DNA of 64,000 nucleotides, taken from contig JACNLO010000037.1 in NCBI GenBank assembly GCA_014381555.1, positions 1 to 64,000 of the forward strand. Reading direction: 5' to 3'. This DNA is from Planctomycetota bacterium (GTDB lineage Bacteria; Planctomycetota; Phycisphaerae; Phycisphaerales; SM1A02). The translations under genes were made by a program, and so were the position numbers. Shown one piece after another: positions 1-10,019 of this stretch. Under the pieces are notes generated by a model. It saw only the letters and a list, made by a program, of their open reading frames with translations. It ran no database searches and had not been told where the DNA came from. Every line of letters starts with the position of its first letter. Positions within the stretch are counted from its first letter, which is position 1.

Positions 1-58
1 TAATAGTAGGGAAATGCAGGAAGGAATACAAGGAAAATATGTGGGATTCAAGCAGGAT

Positions 59-663
59 TCGTTGCCGCGGGCCTGCTTTGCAGTCCCGCGCCACTCGAGT
101 ACTGTGGGCGTGCTTTGCACGCCCGAGCATGGCAGTAGCCATGCTCATGGCCTACTTCCACGAAGAAAAAAGCGATTTCGCTGAAAGTGAAAGTGCTTTT
201 ATTCTTCAAAGGAGTTGGCACTTTCAAAAAGTGTGCATGAAACGAAGTTTCCGCTGTGGCGAATGTATGTACTTTTCAGGGACTCGTTGCCGCGGGCCTG
301 CTTTGCAGTCCCGCGCCACTCGAGTACTGTGGGCGTGCTTTGCACGCCCGAGCATGGCAGTAGCCATGCTCATGGCCTACTTCCACGAAGAAAAAAGCGA
401 TTTCGCTGAAAGTGAAAGTGCTTTTATTCTTCAAAGGAGTTGGCACTTTCAAAAAGTGTGCATGAAACGAAGTTTCCGCTGTGGCGAATGTATGTACTTT
501 TCAGGGACTCGTTGCCGCGGGCCTGCTTTGCAGTCCCGCGCCACTCGAGTACTGTGGGCGTGCTTTGCACGCCCGAGCATGGCAGTAGCCATGCTCATGG
601 CCTACTTCCACGAAGAAAAAAGCGATTTCGCTGAAAGTGAAAGTGCTTTTATTCTTCAAAGGA
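59..663. repeat. Tandem 225-bp hairpin-array repeat, 2.7 copies
   Basis: Copies start at 59, 284 and 509 and look identical by eye; the third is cut off at about 663, next to the 3' end of tRNA-Val. Each unit is a chain of inverted repeats. In copy 2 these are: 291-315 (10 bp with one mismatch, TTT loop), 331-349 (GGGCGTGC/GCACGCCC, TTT loop), 350-371 (GAGCATGGC/GCCATGCTC, 4-nt loop), 396-407 (AGCGA/TCGCT), 414-450 (GAAAGTGC/GCACTTTC, 21-nt loop) and 464-476 (GAAAC/GTTTC). The unit length is divisible by three, so a reading frame runs through all copies, but it follows the palindromes and has no protein hallmarks. This could be a REP/BIME-like or other non-autonomous element, or a structured RNA. 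No transposase is visible, and the array may begin upstream of the window. Confidence 0.9.
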
Positions 664-665
664 AG

Positions 666-739
666 TGGGCCATACAGGACTCGAACCTGTGACTTCTTCG
701 GTGTAAACGAAGCGCTCTAGCCAACTGAGCTAATGGCCC
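666..739 (-). tRNA. tRNA-Val (anticodon UAC)
   Basis: The minus strand folds into a full 74-nt cloverleaf. The 7-bp acceptor is GGGCCAT/ATGGCCC, the D stem GCTC/GAGC, the anticodon stem CTTCG/CGAAG with loop TTTACAC (anticodon UAC), and the T stem ACAGG/CCTGT with loop TTCGAGT. The discriminator is A and CCA is not encoded. It lies 45 bp downstream of the FtsK-like gene on the same strand, so co-transcription is possible. Its 3' end touches the hairpin repeat array. Confidence 0.97.
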
Positions 740-784: not shown

Positions 785-3700
785 TTAAAATTCGGGGGCG
801 TACGGTCTGAACGGCTCTATTGTACCAGTTTCTTCGCTGTAGAGGATAGCACGGTGCATGCCAAGTCGCGAAGCATCTGGCATATCGATAAGGTTCGTGG
901 AATCATTGGCTCCCATTTGTAAAAGCACCCGCATATCAAATTCTCTTAGCGCCTGACGGTCAAACGTCCGGTTTAAGTTTGCAAGGGTGTCCGTTGAACA
1001 AATCACGTGCATTCCAAGAGTTGGACCTTCCTTGAGCAACTCAGTGAAAATTTTGCTTGGAGTTTTTGCCTTTTCTTCGTCGTTCATCGAGAAACCGTAG
1101 TCATCCTCGTCACGACGAAGATCTCTAAAGCGGTGCAAAGCATTCACAATAAAGTAGATGACTGGAGCATCTGTTGCTCCAACTTCGATTCGCTTTTGTA
1201 ACTCTGAATCAATTGAAGCCATTGCTTCTGGGATATCGCGCAACCCAACAAGTTTTGGCTTATTTATCAAGCCATCTATTGCGGCAGGAAGAGTAGCTGA
1301 GTGGGATTGATCTTGCGGAGCTCCATCAAGAAGTATGAATGAAACGTCTTCGGGAGCGTATTGTTTATCAAGTGATCGCAATGAACTGGCAATCAGATTC
1401 GTCGTTATCTCGTCTTGTTGCCCGACAATGAGAAGATTACTTGCTGAAGCCATTCGGAACGTTGCTGAGGTGTCTTCCTTAATTGCCATCGCGCCGCCAA
1501 GCCATGCTTTTGCAGAAAGTGGTTTTGATACTTTTTCTAAACTATTAAACTTTGCATTTTCATGAAGATAAACCGGTTGATTTCCTTCGTAGACAACCAT
1601 CTCGCGTGGTGTGCCATTGTCTCTGACGGCAAGGTTTTCAAGAAAAACTTCTCGCTCACTGTCAGTTATCCACACAACTTGGAAAGGGCTGTTGCCTTCA
1701 ATGTTTCCAGCGGCATCGTTATAAATTGCTTCGCCGGGTCTTGAAAGCAATCGGGCAGCAGCGTTATCTTCGTTGAGAATAATGTAACTGTCTTGCTCGG
1801 AACATTGCAATGCAACCCGAACAGCCATTTGTCCCATCGTTGAGCGACTAAGGGTGTACGCACCGTCTAAGGTTTGTGAACCCATGATTGCATGGATACC
1901 AAATGCACGACCTTGCCTTACAAGTCGGTCAAGCAATAGATTTGCTTCTTGTGCAACACGGTCATCGTCAATGAAGAACTCCTGAAATTCATCGATGATA
2001 AGTAAAATGCGAGGCATACGGTCGCTTGATTTTTTTCTGAACCCTGCAATGTCTTGTACGCCTTGCTCTCGGAATAATTCACCTCTGCGTTTAAGCTCTG
2101 CATCAACTCGTTGCAGCACGCTTATGCCAAACTCTCGATCACTTTCAACGGCAACGACGCGAGCGTGTGGCAACTTGTGCGTTGCGTACGTTTTGAATTC
2201 GACACCTTTCTTAAAGTCGACAAGATAAAACTCGACCTCATCAGGGCTGTACCAAAGCGCAAGGTTTGTGATTAATACGTGGAGCAGTGTGGACTTGCCA
2301 GATCCCGTCTTGCCCGCAATAAGTGCGTGTTGAGCGGTGCCTTTACCAAGCGTAAGGTTCTGTAATTTTGTTGCACCAGATCGACCCAAAGGAATCGCAA
2401 TCTTTTCAGAAGTTGAGCGTGACCACAGATTTTCAGTAGATGGTGCGATGACACCAAAAGGAACTTCAACACGGTGCGTGCTGTCTGCAGTTTCGCCAAC
2501 CTTTTTAACTATGGCTGTGGTGGTGTTTTCATCTGGTGGAAATTCAAGATTGAGCGGTAATTCTCGCAACTCATCTTCGTCTATGCAAAATGAGTTGTCC
2601 TCTTCAACAATGCGAAAAGGAATGCGTTGAAACGTGTCTTCATCAATGCCGGATGGAAGTGGAATAGAAAGATCGCGATGAACAATAACGTACACTCCAC
2701 ACCTTGCTCCACTTGTGACAATACTAGCGAGCCGTTTTGCCGCAAGTTCAGAAAAGTTGTTGGGTAAGTCTGCGATTACTAAAAATCGGTATGGCTCTGC
2801 AATTTCGCCAGCTTTTTCATTATAAGCATCGATAGATTCAAATTCATTACGCAAGTACTTTTGAATAACAGTTTCCATATGCTCAGTAAGGCGAGCAAGT
2901 TGAGCTTCAATATGTCTTGGCTCTGTCCACGCTCGGTCGAGGAGTTGCGAATCTTCGTAATCTGCCAAGTGCATAACCCCTGCAAAACTTTGCCCAAGAC
3001 TTACAGGGTCTATAAGTGTAAACTTTGCTTTGCCAGGAGGGATTGCAGTGAGGATTCGCATGATTGCGTTTTGAATAATCGTAATGCTTCTCTCTCGTTG
3101 TTTGCCTGATGAGGAAACAAGAATGGATGCATTGCCAGGCAACGTAGATCCTACTGGGATGGATAAGTTTGATTCGATCGGAAGCGATAAGTTTTCGCTC
3201 GTAGGCAGAACTCCAGCAACAGTTACGAGGTCGATGGCAAGGTCACCGATTGGGATGGTCGTGCTGGACTCTGTTTTTGGATTCCATGAAACCCACTCTG
3301 TATTCCAAGTGGGATGTTCATTGGATTTTGTCTCAATTTGCACGTTGCAGTCGTCTTGAAAAGCTTGAAGTTCCTCAGTCCATCGTTTGGTGAGCCGTTC
3401 CATTGTGTCATGGTGGTCCGCCTGAATCGATGCCATGCTTTGTGTAAACTCTTTTTGTATCCTTGAACGTTCGGTATCTTTTTGCAGGTCGAGTTCTGCC
3501 ATAGTTGTTTCGTATGTTCGTAGTGCGTCAGCCTCATCCTGTTCAACTCGAGATGCTAAAGTTTTTGCTACTGCTTCAAATCGAGTTTTTTCTTTTTTAA
3601 TATCTTTCTTTGAGAGCCGGTTGATTTCACTGAGTCTCGGTTTATATCTGTCTTCAGCTTTTTTAATTTCGTTGTCGCGGTTTGTTGTGATTGCTTTTTC

Positions 3701-4579
3701 TTTTGCTTTGCGTTTTATCTCTGTTGTTTCAATTGAAATAACGAATGCTTCTTTTGCAAGTGAGATATTTTGATTGAACTCATTGTGTTTTTTTCTAACG
3801 GAGTTCTTTCCAGAAGCAAATGTAGTAATGAGTGCAAGGATTGAAACCACCATCGCGCCAATTGGGATAGCAAAAAGAGAAAGTGAAATTTCCCAGTCTG
3901 TGTAGGCTCCAGAAACAGCGATGGCGCCCGCAGTTACAATGCAGACAATGAAGGCAGGGCGTAAGCCGACGAACCACTTTGCTTTTGGGTCAGATTGAAT
4001 CGCACGAAGGGCTTTGGAAGCAGCGTCTGTGTACTCTTCCATGGTTTTTTCAACCTTGGGGACAGTGCCTGTTTTTTGTTTTGTGTGGGATTGGCGTAAT
4101 TTTGAGAGTGTCTTCGGAGCTTCTTCGCACAAATCCAGTAATTTTTTGTTTGTTTTCTCAAATGATTCAACAACTTTATATGCATGTTTTCGGGGTTCAG
4201 AAATTGCACCTTCATACACAGATTCTGCAAGCCAAATTGCATCGTTTAGTTTTGTTTGATTATGTTCATGAAGTTCTTCTGCTTCAAGTTCGATTTCGGT
4301 TACACGAAGGTCGTGTTTATTTTTAAGTACTTCTGGCTCAACTTTACGTCGTTTATCTGTTTTTGCAAGAGCTGCATCTCTATATTGAATTGCTTGGTTG
4401 CTTTGCTCATCGTAGAGTTCAGAGCATTGTTCAAGTTGGGTTGCCTTCTTTCTTTCAGCCTCGACTTTATGTAAGTCTATACGTTCTCGTAAATCACCCT
4501 CTTCACTTGCTGTTTCTTGAATAAGTACTCGCAATGCTGTGAGTTGTTCTTTCTGATGTTTGAGGGTGGAGTTAGTCAT
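785..4579 (-). CDS. Coiled-coil, membrane-anchored FtsK/EccC-type ATPase
   Basis: About 1264 aa. Order of parts: long charged coiled coil (about 1-200); two adjacent membrane helices (about 203-256); a second coiled coil (about 265-420); a beta-rich linker; an FtsK/SpoIIIE-type P-loop ATPase domain with Walker A GKTGSGKST at 756-764 and Walker B LLIIDEFQEF near 860; and a second FtsK-like domain whose P-loop is degenerate (GQQDEITTN, near 1050). One active plus one degenerate motor domain recalls EccC/EssC of type VII secretion systems. It is last in an operon with a WXG100-like protein and two small coiled-coil proteins, which supports a secretion motor rather than chromosome segregation. 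The start at 4579 (M-T-N-S-T) is a judgement: an in-frame ATG at 4621 exists and neither has a clear Shine-Dalgarno. No FHA domains are seen. Confidence 0.85.
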   Translation of the reverse strand: MTNSTLKHQKEQLTALRVLIQETASEEGDLRERIDLHKVEAERKKATQLEQCSELYDEQSNQAIQYRDAALAKTDKRRKVEPEVLKNKHDLRVTEIELEAEELHEHNQTKLNDAIWLAESVYEGAISEPRKHAYKVVESFEKTNKKLLDLCEEAPKTLSKLRQSHTKQKTGTVPKVEKTMEEYTDAASKALRAIQSDPKAKWFVGLRPAFIVCIVTAGAIAVSGAYTDWEISLSLFAIPIGAMVVSILALITTFASGKNSVRKKHNEFNQNISLAKEAFVISIETTEIKRKAKEKAITTNRDNEIKKAEDRYKPRLSEINRLSKKDIKKEKTRFEAVAKTLASRVEQDEADALRTYETTMAELDLQKDTERSRIQKEFTQSMASIQADHHDTMERLTKRWTEELQAFQDDCNVQIETKSNEHPTWNTEWVSWNPKTESSTTIPIGDLAIDLVTVAGVLPTSENLSLPIESNLSIPVGSTLPGNASILVSSSGKQRERSITIIQNAIMRILTAIPPGKAKFTLIDPVSLGQSFAGVMHLADYEDSQLLDRAWTEPRHIEAQLARLTEHMETVIQKYLRNEFESIDAYNEKAGEIAEPYRFLVIADLPNNFSELAAKRLASIVTSGARCGVYVIVHRDLSIPLPSGIDEDTFQRIPFRIVEEDNSFCIDEDELRELPLNLEFPPDENTTTAIVKKVGETADSTHRVEVPFGVIAPSTENLWSRSTSEKIAIPLGRSGATKLQNLTLGKGTAQHALIAGKTGSGKSTLLHVLITNLALWYSPDEVEFYLVDFKKGVEFKTYATHKLPHARVVAVESDREFGISVLQRVDAELKRRGELFREQGVQDIAGFRKKSSDRMPRILLIIDEFQEFFIDDDRVAQEANLLLDRLVRQGRAFGIHAIMGSQTLDGAYTLSRSTMGQMAVRVALQCSEQDSYIILNEDNAAARLLSRPGEAIYNDAAGNIEGNSPFQVVWITDSEREVFLENLAVRDNGTPREMVVYEGNQPVYLHENAKFNSLEKVSKPLSAKAWLGGAMAIKEDTSATFRMASASNLLIVGQQDEITTNLIASSLRSLDKQYAPEDVSFILLDGAPQDQSHSATLPAAIDGLINKPKLVGLRDIPEAMASIDSELQKRIEVGATDAPVIYFIVNALHRFRDLRRDEDDYGFSMNDEEKAKTPSKIFTELLKEGPTLGMHVICSTDTLANLNRTFDRQALREFDMRVLLQMGANDSTNLIDMPDASRLGMHRAILYSEETGTIEPFRPYAPEF

Positions 4580-4636
4580 AATATGAGTAGAGATGCATGT
4601 CCCCATGGAATTATATTTCATGGGGATTGTATATCG

Positions 4637-4849
4637 TTACGAGCAATCACTTTGAGCTCTCGAAACTGATTCCCCTATCGATTCCATAGCACGAATTGCA
4701 GAATTGACCGAGTCGAGCAGGGGGTTGATGTGCTTTTCTTCAATTCGTCTGCTGACGGGGTCGTCCCACAACTCAGTCGCCTGATTCCATTGATAAATCA
4801 GAGTTTTTGTCGCTTTCGTTAGTTGTGCTGTCGCTGTTTGCATGCTCAT
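4637..4849 (-). CDS. Small helical protein of the WXG100/FtsK operon
   Basis: 70 aa, predicted almost wholly helical and rich in charged and Gln residues, with the segment LIYQWNQATELWDD near the N-terminus and two Cys-free amphipathic helices after it. I do not recognise a named family, but I recall similar short proteins beside FtsK-like genes in planctomycetes. The first 77 bp overlap the end of the upstream 212-aa gene in another frame, so translation is probably coupled. Starts at 4849 and 4843 (M-S-M) are both possible. It may be a second WXG100-sized partner or chaperone of the ATPase encoded 57 bp downstream. Confidence 0.65.
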   Translation of the reverse strand: MSMQTATAQLTKATKTLIYQWNQATELWDDPVSRRIEEKHINPLLDSVNSAIRAMESIGESVSRAQSDCS

Positions 4850-5411
4850 CGTTTATGTATTCCGTTTGTTCTTCGCCCTTGCGTGCGATTGATGTTGTTT
4901 GGGTGGTGGTGAGTTCTTCAGTTGCAGAGGTCGATTTCGTTGAGAGATATTGTTCAAGAGTTGCTATCGATTTCTCGATGAGATGAACTGTCTTTTGAGC
5001 ACTTCCATCAAGTGCTGAACTCAGTGGAGAGAGTTCGCTTCTATATTCGTTGCTACTGCGCTCAAATGTCCTTGACCAACGATTTGTTTGCTTTAGTTTT
5101 TGGCGGGCGTGAGCAACTTCTTCCTTACGTTTACGCACAAGTTGAATTTGGTCAGTTGGCCCTCGAGGGTTGTCTGGTTGAGAAATTTTTGCCCGATAGA
5201 GTTCGTTTTTTGCTTGTGCAAGTTTTTCCTCAGCTCTTCGTGTTTCTTGAATCCAATGCGCAGGTTGCTGTGATTGAAGCCAAAGCTGTATTCGCATAAC
5301 TTCCGAGTCGCTTGTTGAGACGGCTCGCTTTGCCTTGTCAATGAAGTGGATAAGTGCAACGCGAAATTCTCGCAATGCCTCTAACGAACGAACATTTGCT
5401 GATTTTGCCAT
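4773..5411 (-). CDS. Conserved coiled-coil protein of the WXG100/FtsK operon
   Basis: 212 aa. The N-terminal 150 residues are helical and strongly charged, starting MAKSANVRSLEALREF, and form an SMC-like coiled coil containing the Trp-bearing stretch LWLQSQQPAHWIQ. The last 55 or so residues are a low-complexity Ser/Thr/Asp/Glu tail. There is no signal peptide or membrane helix. It starts 3 nt after the WXG100-like gene ends, and its tail codons overlap the start of the 70-aa gene. I recall similar proteins beside FtsK-like genes in planctomycetes, but the function is unknown; a scaffold or substrate adaptor is a guess. Confidence 0.75.
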   Translation of the reverse strand: MAKSANVRSLEALREFRVALIHFIDKAKRAVSTSDSEVMRIQLWLQSQQPAHWIQETRRAEEKLAQAKNELYRAKISQPDNPRGPTDQIQLVRKRKEEVAHARQKLKQTNRWSRTFERSSNEYRSELSPLSSALDGSAQKTVHLIEKSIATLEQYLSTKSTSATEELTTTQTTSIARKGEEQTEYINDEHANSDSTTNESDKNSDLSMESGD

Positions 5412-5414
5412 GTG

Positions 5415-5687
5415 TTACCGTTGCTGAAGGTAGTCCTCGATGCGCTGCGCTTTGCGAAGCAAGAATGGGATTTGTTCTGCTGATGATTTAGAAAAACGGT
5501 CCATCGCCTTGACCGTGAAATCAAACTCTTCTTCAAACTTACGTTGTTCTTGGTCACGCCAGCTTTGTGAAAGGGATGCCATTCTCGATCGCATCACTTG
5601 AAGTTGATGAGTTAAATCGTCATTAAACCGTTTTAGATCATGAGCGAATCGTCTAATTTCTTCGGGGTCTGCAATTGCTTTTGCCAT
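5415..5687 (-). CDS. WXG100 (ESAT-6-like) family protein
   Basis: 90 aa, with no signal peptide and predicted to form a helical hairpin. The mid-protein turn holds SLSQSWRDQEQ, a W-x-x turn matching the WXG position (Asp replaces Gly). The length and central Trp fit the WXG100 family, whose members are substrates or structural partners of type VII secretion. It is the first gene of an operon with two coiled-coil proteins and an FtsK/EccC-type ATPase. The start at 5687 is chosen because MAKAIADPEEIRRFA follows an AAGGATA ribosome site. An upstream in-frame start at 5732 would add 15 unlikely residues. Confidence 0.8.
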   Translation of the reverse strand: MAKAIADPEEIRRFAHDLKRFNDDLTHQLQVMRSRMASLSQSWRDQEQRKFEEEFDFTVKAMDRFSKSSAEQIPFLLRKAQRIEDYLQQR

Positions 5688-5694
5688 TAGTACA

Positions 5695-5716
5695 TATCCT
5701 TTATATATTAAGGATA
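5695..5716 (-). promoter_or_regulatory. Hairpin sequestering the WXG100 Shine-Dalgarno
   Basis: A perfect 7-bp inverted repeat (TATCCTT at 5695-5701, AAGGATA at 5710-5716; 8-nt A/T loop) lies 8 nt upstream of the WXG100 ATG. In the mRNA the arm nearest the start contains the purine-rich ribosome site and the distal arm is its complement. The fold would therefore hide the site, and G-U pairs could extend it. It could equally be an operator or promoter palindrome. Confidence 0.5.
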
Positions 5717-5785
5717 CACCCCAAACCACCATGAGGTTGGAAATTATGCAGAAATGATGCTTCTAGCATTAAATCTCGGGTGTAT

Positions 5786-7105
5786 TTACCTAGCAACAGC
5801 GAGTTCTACAGTTGGTCTACCAACAGAGTAGTAGTTAAATCCATAACTCGCCATCTCGTTTCTTTTGTACAAGTTGCGACCGTCAAACACGACTGGGTCG
5901 TTAAGAATAGTCTTTAATCGTGCAAAATCAGGGGAACTGAACTCTGACCATTCAGTACAAATGACAAGCGCATCTGCTTGATTGGCTGCATCATACATGT
6001 CTTTGAAAATCTCAACTTCAGGGACTTCGTGACGGAATGTTTCCCATGCTTCTGGGTCAAAACCAGTTACTTCTGCACCAGCTTCGATTAAAGTTTTTGC
6101 AATATCAATCGAAGGAGCATCTCTGACATCGTCAGTGTTTGGTTTAAATGCTAAACCCCAGAGTGTAACCTTTTTGCCAGTTAGGTCGTTGTTAAAGTGT
6201 TTTAGGATTCGATCTGCAAACCACCTTCGCTGGCGTTGGTTAAGGTTGTGCACGGCAGTGTTAACAAGGCAGGGAGCATTTGCGTCATCACCCATCTCCA
6301 TTACTGCTAACGTGTCTTTTGGGAAGCAAGATCCACCGTATCCGATGCCCGGCTTGAAGAATTGGTTTCCGATTCGGCTATCTGAACACATGCCAGTGCG
6401 AACACGTTCAATATTTGCACCGTTGCGTTCGCAGAGGGAAGCAATTTCATTTATAAAACTGATTTTACATGCGAGCATAGCGTTGGATGCGTACTTCACC
6501 ATTTCTGAAGAGTGAATATCAAAGAAGAAAATTGGGTGCCCATCACTTATAAATGGAGCATATACCTTCTCTAAGAATTTTTTAGCTCGGTCATCTTCCA
6601 CGCCGCAAACAACACGGTCAGGATTCATGAAGTCGTCGATTGCATTTCCTTCGCGTAAAAACTCAGGACAGTTTGCTATTGAATATTTCCCTTTAAGCCG
6701 CTCTGCAACTTTGTGTGTTGTTCCAACTGGGACGGTGGATTTCACCACGACAGTTGGCGGTTCATCAAACGAGTCGAGTGAATCAGAAATACTGTCGGCA
6801 ACTCCCATAACGTGCGACAAATTGCAACGACCATCTTCTCCTGTTGGAGTTCCAACGCAAATGAAAATGATGGAAGAATCGCAATAGGCTGTATTTGGGT
6901 CATCTGTGAAATGAAGCCGGCCTGCATTAATTGACTTTGTCATCATTTCAGAAAGGCCAGGTTCAAAGAAAGGCGCTTCGCCCTTGCGTAGAGTTTCAAC
7001 TTTCTTAGGGTCAATATCAAGGCACGTCACATTATTCCCCGCATTAGCGAAGCAAGTACCTGTGATTAAGCCAACGTATCCAGTACCAACAATTGTTATT
7101 TTCAT
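5786..7105 (-). CDS. ugd: UDP-glucose 6-dehydrogenase
   Basis: 439 aa. It oxidises UDP-glucose to UDP-glucuronate with two NAD+ in the cytoplasm, supplying surface polysaccharides. The N-terminal Rossmann motif is GTGYVGLITGTCFANAG (about residues 7-23). The central domain carries KSTVPVGTT and the catalytic Cys motif GYGGSCFPKDT. The C-terminal UDP-binding domain has WGLAFKPNTDDVRDAPS. Length is normal for the family. It overlaps the upstream ogt stop by 4 nt and is the last gene of the EEP-ogt-ugd run. Confidence 0.96.
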   Translation of the reverse strand: MKITIVGTGYVGLITGTCFANAGNNVTCLDIDPKKVETLRKGEAPFFEPGLSEMMTKSINAGRLHFTDDPNTAYCDSSIIFICVGTPTGEDGRCNLSHVMGVADSISDSLDSFDEPPTVVVKSTVPVGTTHKVAERLKGKYSIANCPEFLREGNAIDDFMNPDRVVCGVEDDRAKKFLEKVYAPFISDGHPIFFFDIHSSEMVKYASNAMLACKISFINEIASLCERNGANIERVRTGMCSDSRIGNQFFKPGIGYGGSCFPKDTLAVMEMGDDANAPCLVNTAVHNLNQRQRRWFADRILKHFNNDLTGKKVTLWGLAFKPNTDDVRDAPSIDIAKTLIEAGAEVTGFDPEAWETFRHEVPEVEIFKDMYDAANQADALVICTEWSEFSSPDFARLKTILNDPVVFDGRNLYKRNEMASYGFNYYSVGRPTVELAVAR

Positions 7106-7560
7106 GACTTCATTATACCCTTTTCGAGGTCCAATAGATATTGTTTTCTCTTAAGCTCCATGCCTTCCAAATCAGTTGAACCCGAATACCCGTGCAAATG
7201 TCCAGTGCCCGAAATGACACGGTGGCAGGGAGTGATGAGAGTGAGAGGATTTTTTCGCATTGCTTGCCCAGCTGCTCGCATAGCTTTGGGTGAGCCAGCA
7301 TGTTTTGCCAGTTCTGCATACGTTATCGTTTCTCCGTATGGAATGGCTCTGCACGCTACCCAACACTTTTGGGTAAATGGTGTGGAATCGGGAATTGGTG
7401 CATCAAATTTCTCTACGAGTTTTCCGTCAAAATAATCTGCAAATTGCTGGGCTAGTTTTTTTGTTGGTTCCTTTTCGGAGACATGTCTCCCAAAGTCGCA
7501 AAACAATTCGCCATCAAAATACCCAAGAGATATTGGACCTACTTTGGTTTCAATAATCAT
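7102..7560 (-). CDS. ogt: Methylated-DNA-protein-cysteine methyltransferase
   Basis: 152 aa. It repairs O6-alkylguanine by suicide transfer of the alkyl group to its own Cys. The active-site motif TPCHRVI is present, as is the upstream helix-turn-helix region with GETITYAELAKHAGSP and AMRKNP. Length matches short Ogt/MGMT proteins without an Ada domain. It overlaps both neighbours by 4 nt (ATGA), so it is translationally coupled to the EEP-family gene and to ugd. Confidence 0.95.
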   Translation of the reverse strand: MIIETKVGPISLGYFDGELFCDFGRHVSEKEPTKKLAQQFADYFDGKLVEKFDAPIPDSTPFTQKCWVACRAIPYGETITYAELAKHAGSPKAMRAAGQAMRKNPLTLITPCHRVISGTGHLHGYSGSTDLEGMELKRKQYLLDLEKGIMKS

Positions 7561-8699
7561 TTGACAATTCTGAAATCAGCAACAAGTGGTAGGTGATCAG
7601 ATAGTTTTGCAGTGTCTTCTGCTTTGAGATTTTTTTCAAATGATGTTTTTTTGTCAATATCAGCAGTGTCAAGTACAAAACTATTGACGAGAGTAAGTGT
7701 CTCTGGTGAGTACAACATCCAATCCAATCTTCCTGGGGTAAACGAACTTGCCGTGTCTGACCAAGTTGCGTTGAGTCTCATGTCTGGCTGGAACGCGTCA
7801 ACAATAGCAAGTCTGTTTGCTTGAACAATTTCTAGGGGTTTGGTTGTTCCAACAAGATTCCAATCGCCTGCGATAACAAATCTTGGTGACTGCATATTAT
7901 CAATGATTGATCGAATCGATTTTGCCTCTTCCTGTCGCTGTTCTTCAGCTTCACCGGTAGGTCCTCCGCAACACCTGAGGTGGAGTGAAATAAAGTTAAT
8001 TGGCTTTTCTTTTACATAGATAGCGCCAACAATTATTTTTTGTTTTGCGATACATTCGAAGATTTTTGATTGGAGTGAGGTAACTATCGCACTTTTTAGT
8101 TTGTGATGGCGCTCGGTTCCGCTACTTGTGCTTGTAGCAGCCGTCCAGTTTCCTCCAAGTGCTGCATTGATAAAATCAGTGATTGTTGCGGGAGTGTCAT
8201 CACCATCGAGTTCTTGCAAAAGCAAGACGTCAGGTTGAAGGGCTTTTAAAATGCGAGCACTTCGTTCGGTGTCATCTAGAAGGTTCCCGAATTGGACATT
8301 CCAACTTACTACCCTTAAGTCTCCTTTTGGCGTAAAAAGAGCTTCACATTGTTTTGTAGGAAAGGTGGTCTTTGGTTTGTTGACTCTAAGTTCAAACGAA
8401 GTGGCTGCAGTTGTTGGCGCGAAGACGACTCCAGCATCGTATGGAGAAATCCATTCATCACCTTTTTTGCAGGAAACCCCGTAACCCTTACCCTTTGGTG
8501 AGAAGAAAACAGTGTACTCTCCAATCTCTACAACCTTTTGCTCGGGCAACTGTTGCAGGCACGCTTCGCTAGGGAGTTCTATGAGTTGATACACGAAGTA
8601 GTCATCTTCTTGATGGGTGACACCATCTTCCCAATCATGGAAGGAACCATCGATTTGGATGGGAGAAAGAGCAAGGCAAAGTATTGGAAGAATAAGCAT
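7557..8699 (-). CDS. Secreted endonuclease/exonuclease/phosphatase-family protein
   Basis: 380 aa. The N-terminus [18 protein letters not shown] looks like a signal peptide. A roughly 120-residue beta-rich region follows, then an EEP domain with [26 protein letters not shown] and a final [10 protein letters not shown]. These are the metal- and phosphate-binding Asn, Glu, Asp and His motifs of the fold. The substrate cannot be told: nucleic acid, phosphoinositide or sphingomyelin-like lipids are all possible. An upstream GTG at 8717 adds MYSTHT and would leave only 3 bp to glyA; the ATG at 8699 is preferred. Confidence 0.85.
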
Positions 8700-8720
8700 A
8701 GTGTGTGTAGAATACACGGT

Positions 8721-10019
8721 ATGACGAATACAACTGAATTACCAATTTTAGACCCATTGTCACTAGAACTCCTTCGTGTTCTTGAAGTTTCTGATGCTCA
8801 AGTTGCAACAAGCATGGAAGCAGAAGCTAGGCGACAACAATATACGCTTGAATTGATTGCATCTGAAAACCATGTCTCTCCTACTGTGATGCATACAATG
8901 GGGTCGTGGCTTACAAATAAATATGCTGAAGGGTATCCTGGGAAAAGGTATTACGGTGGATGTGAACATCACGATGCCATTGAGGATTTAGCACGAGATC
9001 GTGCTAAAGAGTTGTTTGGTTGTAAGTTTGCAAATGTCCAGCCACACAGTGGTGCTAATGCAAATGTCGCTGCGTTTATGGCATTATGTAAACCAGGCGA
9101 CACGATTCTTTCCTTGCCAATAAGTTCTGGTGGTCACTTGAGCCATGGTTTGAAACCAAACTTTTCAGGCACATTTTACAACATTGAAAGTTACGAACTT
9201 GACAGTGATACCGAAACACTTGATTACGACCATATTGCTGCTCGTGCAATTGAAACAAAACCCAAGATGATTATTTGCGGGTACAGCGCCTACTCACGAA
9301 CAATTGATTTTAAAAGGTTCCGTGAAATTGCAGATTCAGTCGGGGCATATTTGATGGCAGACATAGCACATATTGCGGGGCTAGTTGCAGGCGGGCAACA
9401 TCCTTCGCCATTCCCTCACGCTCATGTTGTCACAACGACGACTCACAAAACACTTCGGGGTCCTCGTGGTGGTTTGATTCTGACGAACGATGAAGAGGTT
9501 GCAAAATTGGTTGATCGAAAAGTGTTTCCTGGGAGCCAAGGTGGCCCATTGATGCACATTATTGCAGCAAAAGCCGTTGCTCTTGGTGAAGCATTGCAAC
9601 CATCTTTTAAAACATACGCAGCGAATGTTGTTGAAAATGCTGCAGCCCTTGCAGAAGCTCTTGTAGAACATGGATATCGATTATGCAGTGGTGGAACAGA
9701 TAATCACTTGATGCTCGTTGATCTACGACCGCGAGATGAAAATTTAACGGGATCTGATGCTGAAGATTGGCTTGGTAGCGCTGGGATTGTTGTGAATAAG
9801 AACGGTATTCCAAACGACCCTCGCAAGCCGATGGTGACAAGCGGGTTACGCCTAGGAACTGCTGCATTGACAACTCGTGGTTTAAATTCCGACGACATGC
9901 GTACGATCGCTTCGATGATTGACCGCGTTCTTGCAAGCGGTGGTGACGAAGAAGTTTGCAATGCCGTTAATGCTGAAGTCCGTGAATTGTGTGAGCAACA
10001 CCCATTGTATGGGCATTGA
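8721..10019 (+). CDS. glyA: Serine hydroxymethyltransferase
   Basis: 432 aa. A PLP enzyme interconverting serine plus tetrahydrofolate with glycine plus 5,10-methylene-tetrahydrofolate. The PLP lysine motif [13 protein letters not shown] is present, along with the N-terminal [11 protein letters not shown] and [11 protein letters not shown]. The ATG at 8721 gives the usual family N-terminus; the open frame extends to 8538 but that part is antisense to the EEP gene. Only 21 bp separates it from the divergent EEP start. folD elsewhere in the window uses the same one-carbon pool. Confidence 0.97.

What the first reader, a model, noticed from the sequence alone, without database searches (positions are those of the whole stretch)
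785..5732. Minimal type VII secretion-like operon in a planctomycete
Four co-directional genes are packed together: a 90-aa WXG100-like protein, a 212-aa SMC-like coiled-coil protein, a 70-aa helical protein, and a 1264-aa coiled-coil/two-TM ATPase with one good P-loop (GKTGSGKST) and one degenerate domain. The WXG100 plus EccC/EssC-like ATPase pairing is the core of type VII secretion, but the other known components (EccB, EccD, EsaA, EssA, EssB, mycosin) and any LXG toxin are missing. The ATPase carries long coiled coils where EssC has FHA domains. This may be a distinct Gram-negative T7SS-like machine.
Basis: partly seen in the sequence, partly recalled or inferred. Interest (0 to 1): 0.75.

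Follow-up and report, generated by a model that had tools for sequence, protein, structure and literature searches.

The report
Minimal WXG-protein export module, Planctomycetes/Verrucomicrobia
Four neighbouring genes in this planctomycete form a stripped-down, unstudied relative of the type VII protein-export machine of Gram-positive bacteria, and its four parts are kept together as a set across Planctomycetes even when they no longer sit side by side.

Summary
The 90-aa protein is a true WXG100 protein (Pfam over cut-off; nearest solved structure H. pylori HP0062). The ATPase is EccC/EssC-like, not FtsK-like, with a membrane hairpin and a predicted long coiled-coil stalk. The four genes are a real unit: in 392 Planctomycetota genomes each occurs in 60-61, in single copy, and 57 of the 63 genomes with any gene have all four. 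In some genomes the four are scattered over the chromosome yet all retained. The same gene order occurs in Verrucomicrobiota and Lentisphaerota. In a distant Helicobacter plasmid relative the slot of the 212-aa protein holds a coil fused to a WHH nuclease, followed by a SUKH immunity protein; here the slot is toxin-less. Most likely it is a type VII-like translocase exporting a complex of a helical carrier and two small WXG-like hairpins. Export itself is inferred. The general kind was noted in 2012 (Zhang et al., table footnote naming planctomycetes and verrucomicrobia) and 2024 (CoCoNuT paper). The obligate toxin-less four-part form is a new variant.

The parts
5415..5687 (-). WXG100 protein, 90 aa, WxD at the turn (W43, D45 invariant), conserved C-terminus IEDYLQQR
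   Evidence: Pfam PF06013 over cut-off; PDB HP0062 E=4.5e-8 single sequence, 6.6e-17 profile; 43/43 aligned members have WxD
4773..5411 (-). 212-aa helical protein: predicted long two-helix hairpin (residues 10-168) plus disordered tail; carrier/substrate slot
   Evidence: AF2 pLDDT 86; family in 60/392 phylum genomes, one copy each
4637..4849 (-). 70-aa short WXG-like hairpin (W21, W28, D30 invariant; C69 nearly invariant); overlaps the 212-aa gene by 77 bases
   Evidence: phmmer to WXG family up to 5.7e-7; hhalign prob 82%, E=1e-5; invariant columns
785..4579 (-). EccC/EssC-like ATPase, 1264 aa: N-terminal coil, TM hairpin, coiled-coil stalk, three FtsK/HerA domains
3827..3970 (-). two transmembrane segments of the ATPase (residues 204-222 and 233-251)
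   Evidence: hydropathy; 111 of 127 family members have exactly two
3317..3883 (-). TM2 and predicted long helical stalk (residues 233-421)
   Evidence: AF2 single helix over this range, but pLDDT falls to 52-63 in its middle
2480..3259 (-). ATPase domain D1 (about residues 441-700), P-loop lost
   Evidence: weak PF01580 match; AF2 fold; no Walker A, conserved DPVG
1640..2437 (-). ATPase domain D2 (about residues 715-980), the only one with intact catalytic motifs: GKTGSGKST at 2288-2314, DEFQ at 1982-1993
800..1513 (-). ATPase domain D3 (about residues 1023-1260), P-loop degenerate (GQQDE)
   Evidence: AF2 fold; D2+D3 tandem matches EssC 4lya with Z 29.0 over 490 residues, rmsd 6.1

Best explanation
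An obligate four-component, type VII-like protein translocase. Shown by sequence and comparison: the parts, the three-domain EccC/EssC-type ATPase with one active domain and a TM hairpin, and strict co-inheritance of all four genes. Inferred: the ATPase oligomerises at the inner membrane, held away from it by a long coiled-coil stalk. The 212-aa helical hairpin forms a pre-export complex with the 90-aa and 70-aa WXG-like hairpins, as LXG effectors do with Lap1 and Lap2 in T7SSb (PMC9600955). The middle ATPase domain powers transfer of some or all of this complex across the inner membrane. Because the carrier slot holds a nuclease toxin in a distant Helicobacter plasmid relative but only a short tail (or, in some members, an Imm33-like domain) here, the PVC form is more likely a fixed housekeeping or envelope export device than a toxin launcher. 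How anything crosses the outer membrane is unknown.
For: WXG100 match over the curated cut-off and profile match to HP0062/EsxB/EsxA structures. The ATPase scores far better with EccC/EssC than FtsK models. AF2 model (pLDDT 84) shows TM hairpin, long helix and three ATPase folds; Foldseek rank 1 is the EccC three-ATPase cytoplasmic domain (4nh0, 965 columns, E=2.3e-32) and EssC D2-D3 aligns over 490 residues. Four families in 60-61 of 392 genomes each, single copy, all four in 57 of 63. Same order WXG-p212-p70-ATPase across Planctomycetota, Verrucomicrobiota and Lentisphaerota. Scattered yet all retained in two single-contig genomes: G083 (WXG 2.50 Mb, p212 and p70 4.30 Mb, ATPase 5.92 Mb) and G161 (WXG 0.71, p212 2.66, p70 1.94, ATPase 0.23 Mb). 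Plasmid relatives with the same slots: Helicobacter WXG / coil+WHH nuclease / SUKH / 77 aa / ATPase; Caballeronia WXG / 436 aa / 113 aa / 76 aa / ATPase beside a TerY-P-type cluster. The p212 profile scores 20-25 bits on three such slot proteins against at most 13 on 256 natural coil controls.
Against: No secretion data. The YxxxD/E export motif of T7SSa is absent from the last 32 residues of all 43 WXG and all 54 70-aa proteins aligned. No YukC match above cut-off and no LXG in 13 genomes. No second WXG or p212 copy was found as an extra substrate. The related CoCoNuT-linked ATPases lack TM segments, and their authors suggest a different mechanism. The Helicobacter toxin's coil does not match the p212 profile, so equivalence there rests on position alone. 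Stalk confidence drops to 52-63 in its middle.
Confidence: 0.6

Rival explanations
1. An intracellular device, not a secretion system: the WXG-like hairpins and the helical protein act as adaptors that load a target (DNA or a protein) onto a membrane-tethered FtsK/HerA-type pump, for stress response or defence, as in the TerY-P and CoCoNuT neighbourhoods.
For: Close plasmid relatives sit in TerY-P, TerD and CARF contexts; PMC11090510 links this ATPase kind to CoCoNuT; the ATPase also matches SspH and mad8 defence models; no export motif.
Against: PVC members have two conserved TM segments and no recurrent neighbour gene at all beyond 5 of 26 loci; the tandem three-ATPase arrangement is EccC-like.
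Confidence: 0.22
2. A degraded mobile toxin-delivery operon: the toxin and immunity genes were lost and the remainder is kept by chance or spread by transfer.
For: PMC3482391 called such systems mobile versions of T7SS; toxin and immunity genes occupy the slot in a Helicobacter plasmid.
Against: Single-copy, nearly all-four-or-none retention even when unlinked; Verrucomicrobiota form one fully supported clade in the ATPase tree; D2 catalytic residues are 89-100% conserved in 84 sequences.
Confidence: 0.08
3. A cell-division or envelope organiser: the FtsK-family pump and coiled-coil proteins build a scaffold at the membrane, and the WXG fold is only a structural hairpin.
For: Housekeeping-like inheritance with no toxin partner; coiled-coil rich parts.
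Against: Only about 15% of sampled Planctomycetota have it, so it is not a general division part; the genome has a separate FtsK; WXG100 proteins are not known as scaffolds (own knowledge).
Confidence: 0.1

Closest known systems
Solo WXG plus YueA-like three-domain ATPase, 'mobile versions of T7SS' (Zhang et al. 2012, PMC3482391, Table 1 footnote 6)
   Same: Planctomycetes and verrucomicrobia named; three HerA/FtsK domains with only the middle one active; WXG without toxin fusion
   Different: The footnote gives no operon, no second WXG-like protein, no helical carrier and no TM/stalk; here the PVC form looks old and stable rather than mobile
EssC-like ATPase/WXG100 operon of Type III-A CoCoNuT and TerY-P loci (PMC11090510; Anantharaman 2012 as cited there)
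   Same: Only central D2 active, long N-terminal coiled coil, two WXG100-type proteins, a coiled-coil protein in the operon
   Different: Those ATPases are said to lack TM helices and their coiled-coil protein carries a nuclease domain; here two TM segments, no nuclease, no CoCoNuT genes
H. pylori HP0062/HP0066 minimal WXG100 system (PMC4978471, PMC3397514)
   Same: WXG hairpin is the nearest solved structure (3fx7), FtsK/SpoIIIE gene nearby, Gram-negative host
   Different: The relative read here, on a Helicobacter plasmid, has an 823-aa ATPase and a nuclease/SUKH pair; HP0066 itself was not compared
T7SSb (EssC, EsxA, LXG with Lap1/Lap2; PMC9600955)
   Same: WXG100, tandem-ATPase coupling protein, elongated helical protein with two small hairpins
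   Different: No YukC or LXG found; coiled coil where EssC has FHA domains; D1 inactive, whereas EssC is described with active D1 and D2 (PMC11090510)
T7SSa/ESX (EccC)
   Same: Best full-length fold match 4nh0 (Thermomonospora EccC)
   Different: No YxxxD/E motif; accessory membrane proteins not seen in the locus; long stalk

Membership tests
Type VII secretion system (T7SSa/T7SSb) | WXG100-family small protein | tested here: met
   PF06013 34.6 bits, cut-off 27.3; PDB profile matches
Type VII secretion system (T7SSa/T7SSb) | Membrane-bound EccC/EssC-type ATPase with tandem ATPase domains | tested here: met
   122/121 bits to EccCa/EssC models, though below their equivalog cut-offs of 509/778; 4nh0 top fold match; two TM segments
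Type VII secretion system (T7SSa/T7SSb) | C-terminal YxxxD/E export motif in a WXG/PE-type protein (T7SSa) | tested here: not met
   0 of 43 WXG and 0 of 54 70-aa proteins
Type VII secretion system (T7SSa/T7SSb) | EssB/YukC membrane component (T7SSb) | tested here: not met
   No match above cut-off in 13 genomes; best 16.7 bits against 27.4
Type VII secretion system (T7SSa/T7SSb) | LXG effectors (T7SSb) | tested here: not met
   0 of 13 genomes; control rings in B. subtilis
Type VII secretion system (T7SSa/T7SSb) | EccB, EccD, EccE, mycosin, EsaA, EssA | not tested
Type VII secretion system (T7SSa/T7SSb) | Export of WXG proteins | not testable with these tools
   Needs fractionation or secretome data
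Solo WXG / YueA-like ATPase group (Zhang 2012) | Three HerA/FtsK domains, only the middle active | tested here: met
   Motif conservation in 84 sequences; AF2 model
Solo WXG / YueA-like ATPase group (Zhang 2012) | Solo WXG gene without toxin fusion, in planctomycetes/verrucomicrobia | tested here: met
Solo WXG / YueA-like ATPase group (Zhang 2012) | Mobile element | tested here: not met
   Phylum-coherent ATPase tree, single copy, retained when dispersed. Within-phylum transfer is not excluded
CoCoNuT-associated EssC-like operon | No TM helices; coiled-coil-nuclease protein; CoCoNuT neighbours | tested here: not met
   TM segments present; Pfam finds no nuclease in the 212-aa protein; neighbouring ORFs by inspection are UDP-glucose dehydrogenase-like and methyltransferase-like
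FtsK chromosome translocase | Best score to FtsK models, single motor domain | tested here: not met
   35.8 bits to FtsK against 121.9 to EccCa; own genome has another FtsK-domain ORF (793 aa, 211 bits)

The most novel reading that the evidence does not exclude
The PVC phyla carry their own conserved, toxin-less, stalked type VII-like exporter for a diderm envelope, with four obligate parts and a fixed non-toxic cargo; toxin-carrying versions on plasmids elsewhere would be a radiation of the same carrier slot. It would be a distinct T7SS class beyond the Gram-positive T7SSa-j.
Probability: 0.4. Interest if true: 0.75.

Novelty: new variant of a known kind. Interest (0 to 1): 0.52.

Why it matters
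A recent subtype survey treats T7SS as a system of Bacillota and Actinomycetota (PMC11217815). A four-part, single-copy, co-inherited WXG/EssC-like module in diderm PVC bacteria would make the smallest working set of a type VII machine testable, and raises the question of how such a device works with an outer membrane. The comparison with plasmid relatives also suggests what the middle gene is: a carrier slot that is toxin-loaded in some lineages and empty here.

Tried and rejected
Rejected: chromosome-segregating FtsK. Rejected: chance neighbours. Rejected for PVC: recent mobile operon. A fifth recurrent neighbour gene: none in more than 5 of 26 loci at family level. LXG, and YukC above cut-off: not found. 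PDB sequence search with the p212 profile: only chance helical matches, best E=0.02; Foldseek with the p212 model: no match at E<=0.001. PDB search with the 70-aa profile gave only weak hits, ESXA at E=0.27, so WXG-likeness of the 70-aa protein rests and the motif. A short tail motif in p212 proved inconsistent (23 of 112). Outgroup placements in the tree sit on very long branches and are not used. Phage records gave only partial matches. In the VIA table single FtsK motor chains rank first by Z, but they cover one domain only.
Full report
What is there. The minus strand of window 785-5687 holds, in reading order, a 90-aa WXG100 protein (5415-5687), a 212-aa helical protein (4773-5411), a 70-aa protein (4637-4849, overlapping the previous gene by 77 bases) and a 1264-aa ATPase (785-4579). 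The WXG100 Pfam model matches over its curated cut-off (34.6 against 27.3 bits); the ATPase matches FtsK_SpoIIIE with 130 bits. NCBIfam gives 122 and 121 bits to the EccCa and EssC models, 36 to FtsK. The genome has one WXG100 match and a separate 793-aa FtsK-domain ORF.

The ATPase. Hydropathy gives two transmembrane segments at residues 204-222 and 233-251; 111 of 127 family members have exactly two. The AF2 model of residues 180-1264, on an 84-sequence alignment, has mean pLDDT 84: TM hairpin, one helix running from TM2 for about 170 residues beyond the membrane (confidence only 52-63 in its middle), then three ATPase folds. Foldseek ranks the three-ATPase cytoplasmic part of Thermomonospora EccC first (4nh0, E=2.3e-32, 965 columns), then EccC and EssC two-domain structures, then single FtsK motors. 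VIA-align gives single FtsK motors the highest Z over one domain (31.9, rmsd 2.5, 274 residues), and EssC D2-D3 Z 29.0 (rmsd 6.1) over 490 residues. Only the middle domain keeps catalytic motifs (GKTGSGKST 89-100% and DEFQ 100% conserved in 84 sequences); D1 and D3 have lost the P-loop.

The small proteins. The WXG profile finds H. pylori HP0062 (6.6e-17), then EsxB and EsxA structures. All 43 aligned WXG and all 54 70-aa proteins carry WxD; the YxxxD/E export motif is absent from both. Single-sequence comparison joins the 70-aa family to the WXG family at up to 5.7e-7 and profile comparison gives 82% probability, so the 70-aa protein is probably a short second WXG-like hairpin. The 212-aa protein is predicted as a long two-helix hairpin with a disordered tail (pLDDT 86) with no significant fold match.

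The unit. In 392 Planctomycetota genomes the ATPase occurs in 61, the 212-aa family in 60, WXG in 60 and the 70-aa family in 61; the three small families are always single copy at the thresholds used, and the few second ATPase matches are mostly split or partial pieces. Of the 63 genomes with any of them, 57 have all four, and five of the six exceptions are assemblies of 61-86% estimated completeness. Of 118 fetched loci with at least 1.1 kb upstream of the ATPase, 103 have all three small genes there in the same order (some loci are the same genome fetched twice). In several genomes of one family the genes are unlinked yet all present: in single-contig G083 the WXG gene lies at 2.50 Mb, the 212- and 70-aa genes at 4.30 Mb and the ATPase at 5.92 Mb; in single-contig G161 all four are apart; in G207 and G352 only the ATPase has moved. 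This is stronger evidence for a functional set than neighbourhood alone. No fifth gene recurs beside the block in more than 5 of 26 loci.

Distribution and inheritance. A scan of bacterial species genomes found it in Planctomycetota, Verrucomicrobiota and one Lentisphaerota. In the ATPase tree the Verrucomicrobiota rows form one clade (SH-aLRT 100) next to the Lentisphaerota row. Within Planctomycetota it is patchy (about 15% of sampled genomes, but most members of the window's own family). This argues against recent spread as a mobile element; older or within-phylum transfer is not excluded.

The carrier slot. Plasmid relatives share the slots. Helicobacter sp. NHP19-012: 89-aa WXG, 340-aa protein ending in a WHH/Colicin-DNase nuclease, SUKH-type protein, 77-aa protein, ATPase. 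Caballeronia sp. SBC2: vWA, WXG100, 436 aa, 113 aa, 76 aa, ATPase, CARF, vWA, PP2C, kinase, that is, a TerY-P-type neighbourhood. Rhodococcus and Deinococcus plasmids have rearranged versions. The 212-aa profile scores 25.1, 20.7 and 20.5 bits on the Rhodococcus, Deinococcus and Caballeronia slot proteins, against at most 13.1 on 256 natural coiled-coil segments and 6.3 on shuffles, but -2.6 on the Helicobacter one. About eleven PVC members of the 212-aa family carry a C-terminal extension; of eight scanned, six exceed the cut-off of the Imm33-like domain PF24719 and two match it weakly. So the slot takes different C-terminal parts; in the window it has only a short tail.

Mechanism. By analogy with LXG effectors, which are exported after forming complexes with two small helical targeting proteins, Lap1 and Lap2 (PMC9600955), the most likely working is a pre-export complex of the 212-aa hairpin with the 90- and 70-aa hairpins, fed to the EccC/EssC-like ATPase. 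This is inference; no export, binding or localisation has been shown.

Prior knowledge. [quoted passage not shown] PMC11090510 describes CoCoNuT-linked EssC-like ATPases with only D2 active, N-terminal coiled coil, no TM helices, two WXG100 proteins and a coiled-coil nuclease. PMC4978471 describes WXG and FtsK genes as a minimal type VII set in H. pylori. Searches of the held papers found no study of the planctomycete or verrucomicrobial form; subscription papers are mostly not held. The new points here are the membrane-anchored stalked ATPase, the second WXG-like protein in this form, the toxin-less carrier, and the obligate single-copy co-inheritance even when unlinked.

Noticed in passing
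window 55-663: A 225-bp unit repeated 2.7 times at 99% identity at the very start of the contig, ending next to a tRNA-Val gene (665-739, minus strand).
   Followed up: no
L101:2545-3624, L043:11714-12748 and about nine others: The 212-aa family carries a C-terminal extension matching the Imm33-like domain (PF24719) in some planctomycetes.
   Followed up: partly
L177 (Helicobacter sp. NHP19-012 plasmid) 4761-9163: WXG, coil-WHH nuclease, SUKH immunity protein, 77-aa protein and EssC-like ATPase in one operon: looks like a complete small toxin-delivery cassette.
   Followed up: partly
L098 and L146: MAGs labelled Alphaproteobacteria (SP218) and Anaerolineae (S014_14) carry ATPases 59% and 53% identical to the window's; probably misbinned planctomycete contigs.
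   Followed up: no
genomes G083, G144, G161, G207, G352 (one family): The operon is broken up over the chromosome in this family while all four genes are kept; neighbours of the lone WXG gene give no clear hint of function.
   Followed up: partly
L051, L053, L058, L059, L062: A 1200-1470-aa gene on the opposite strand follows the ATPase in five related genera; not identified.
   Followed up: no
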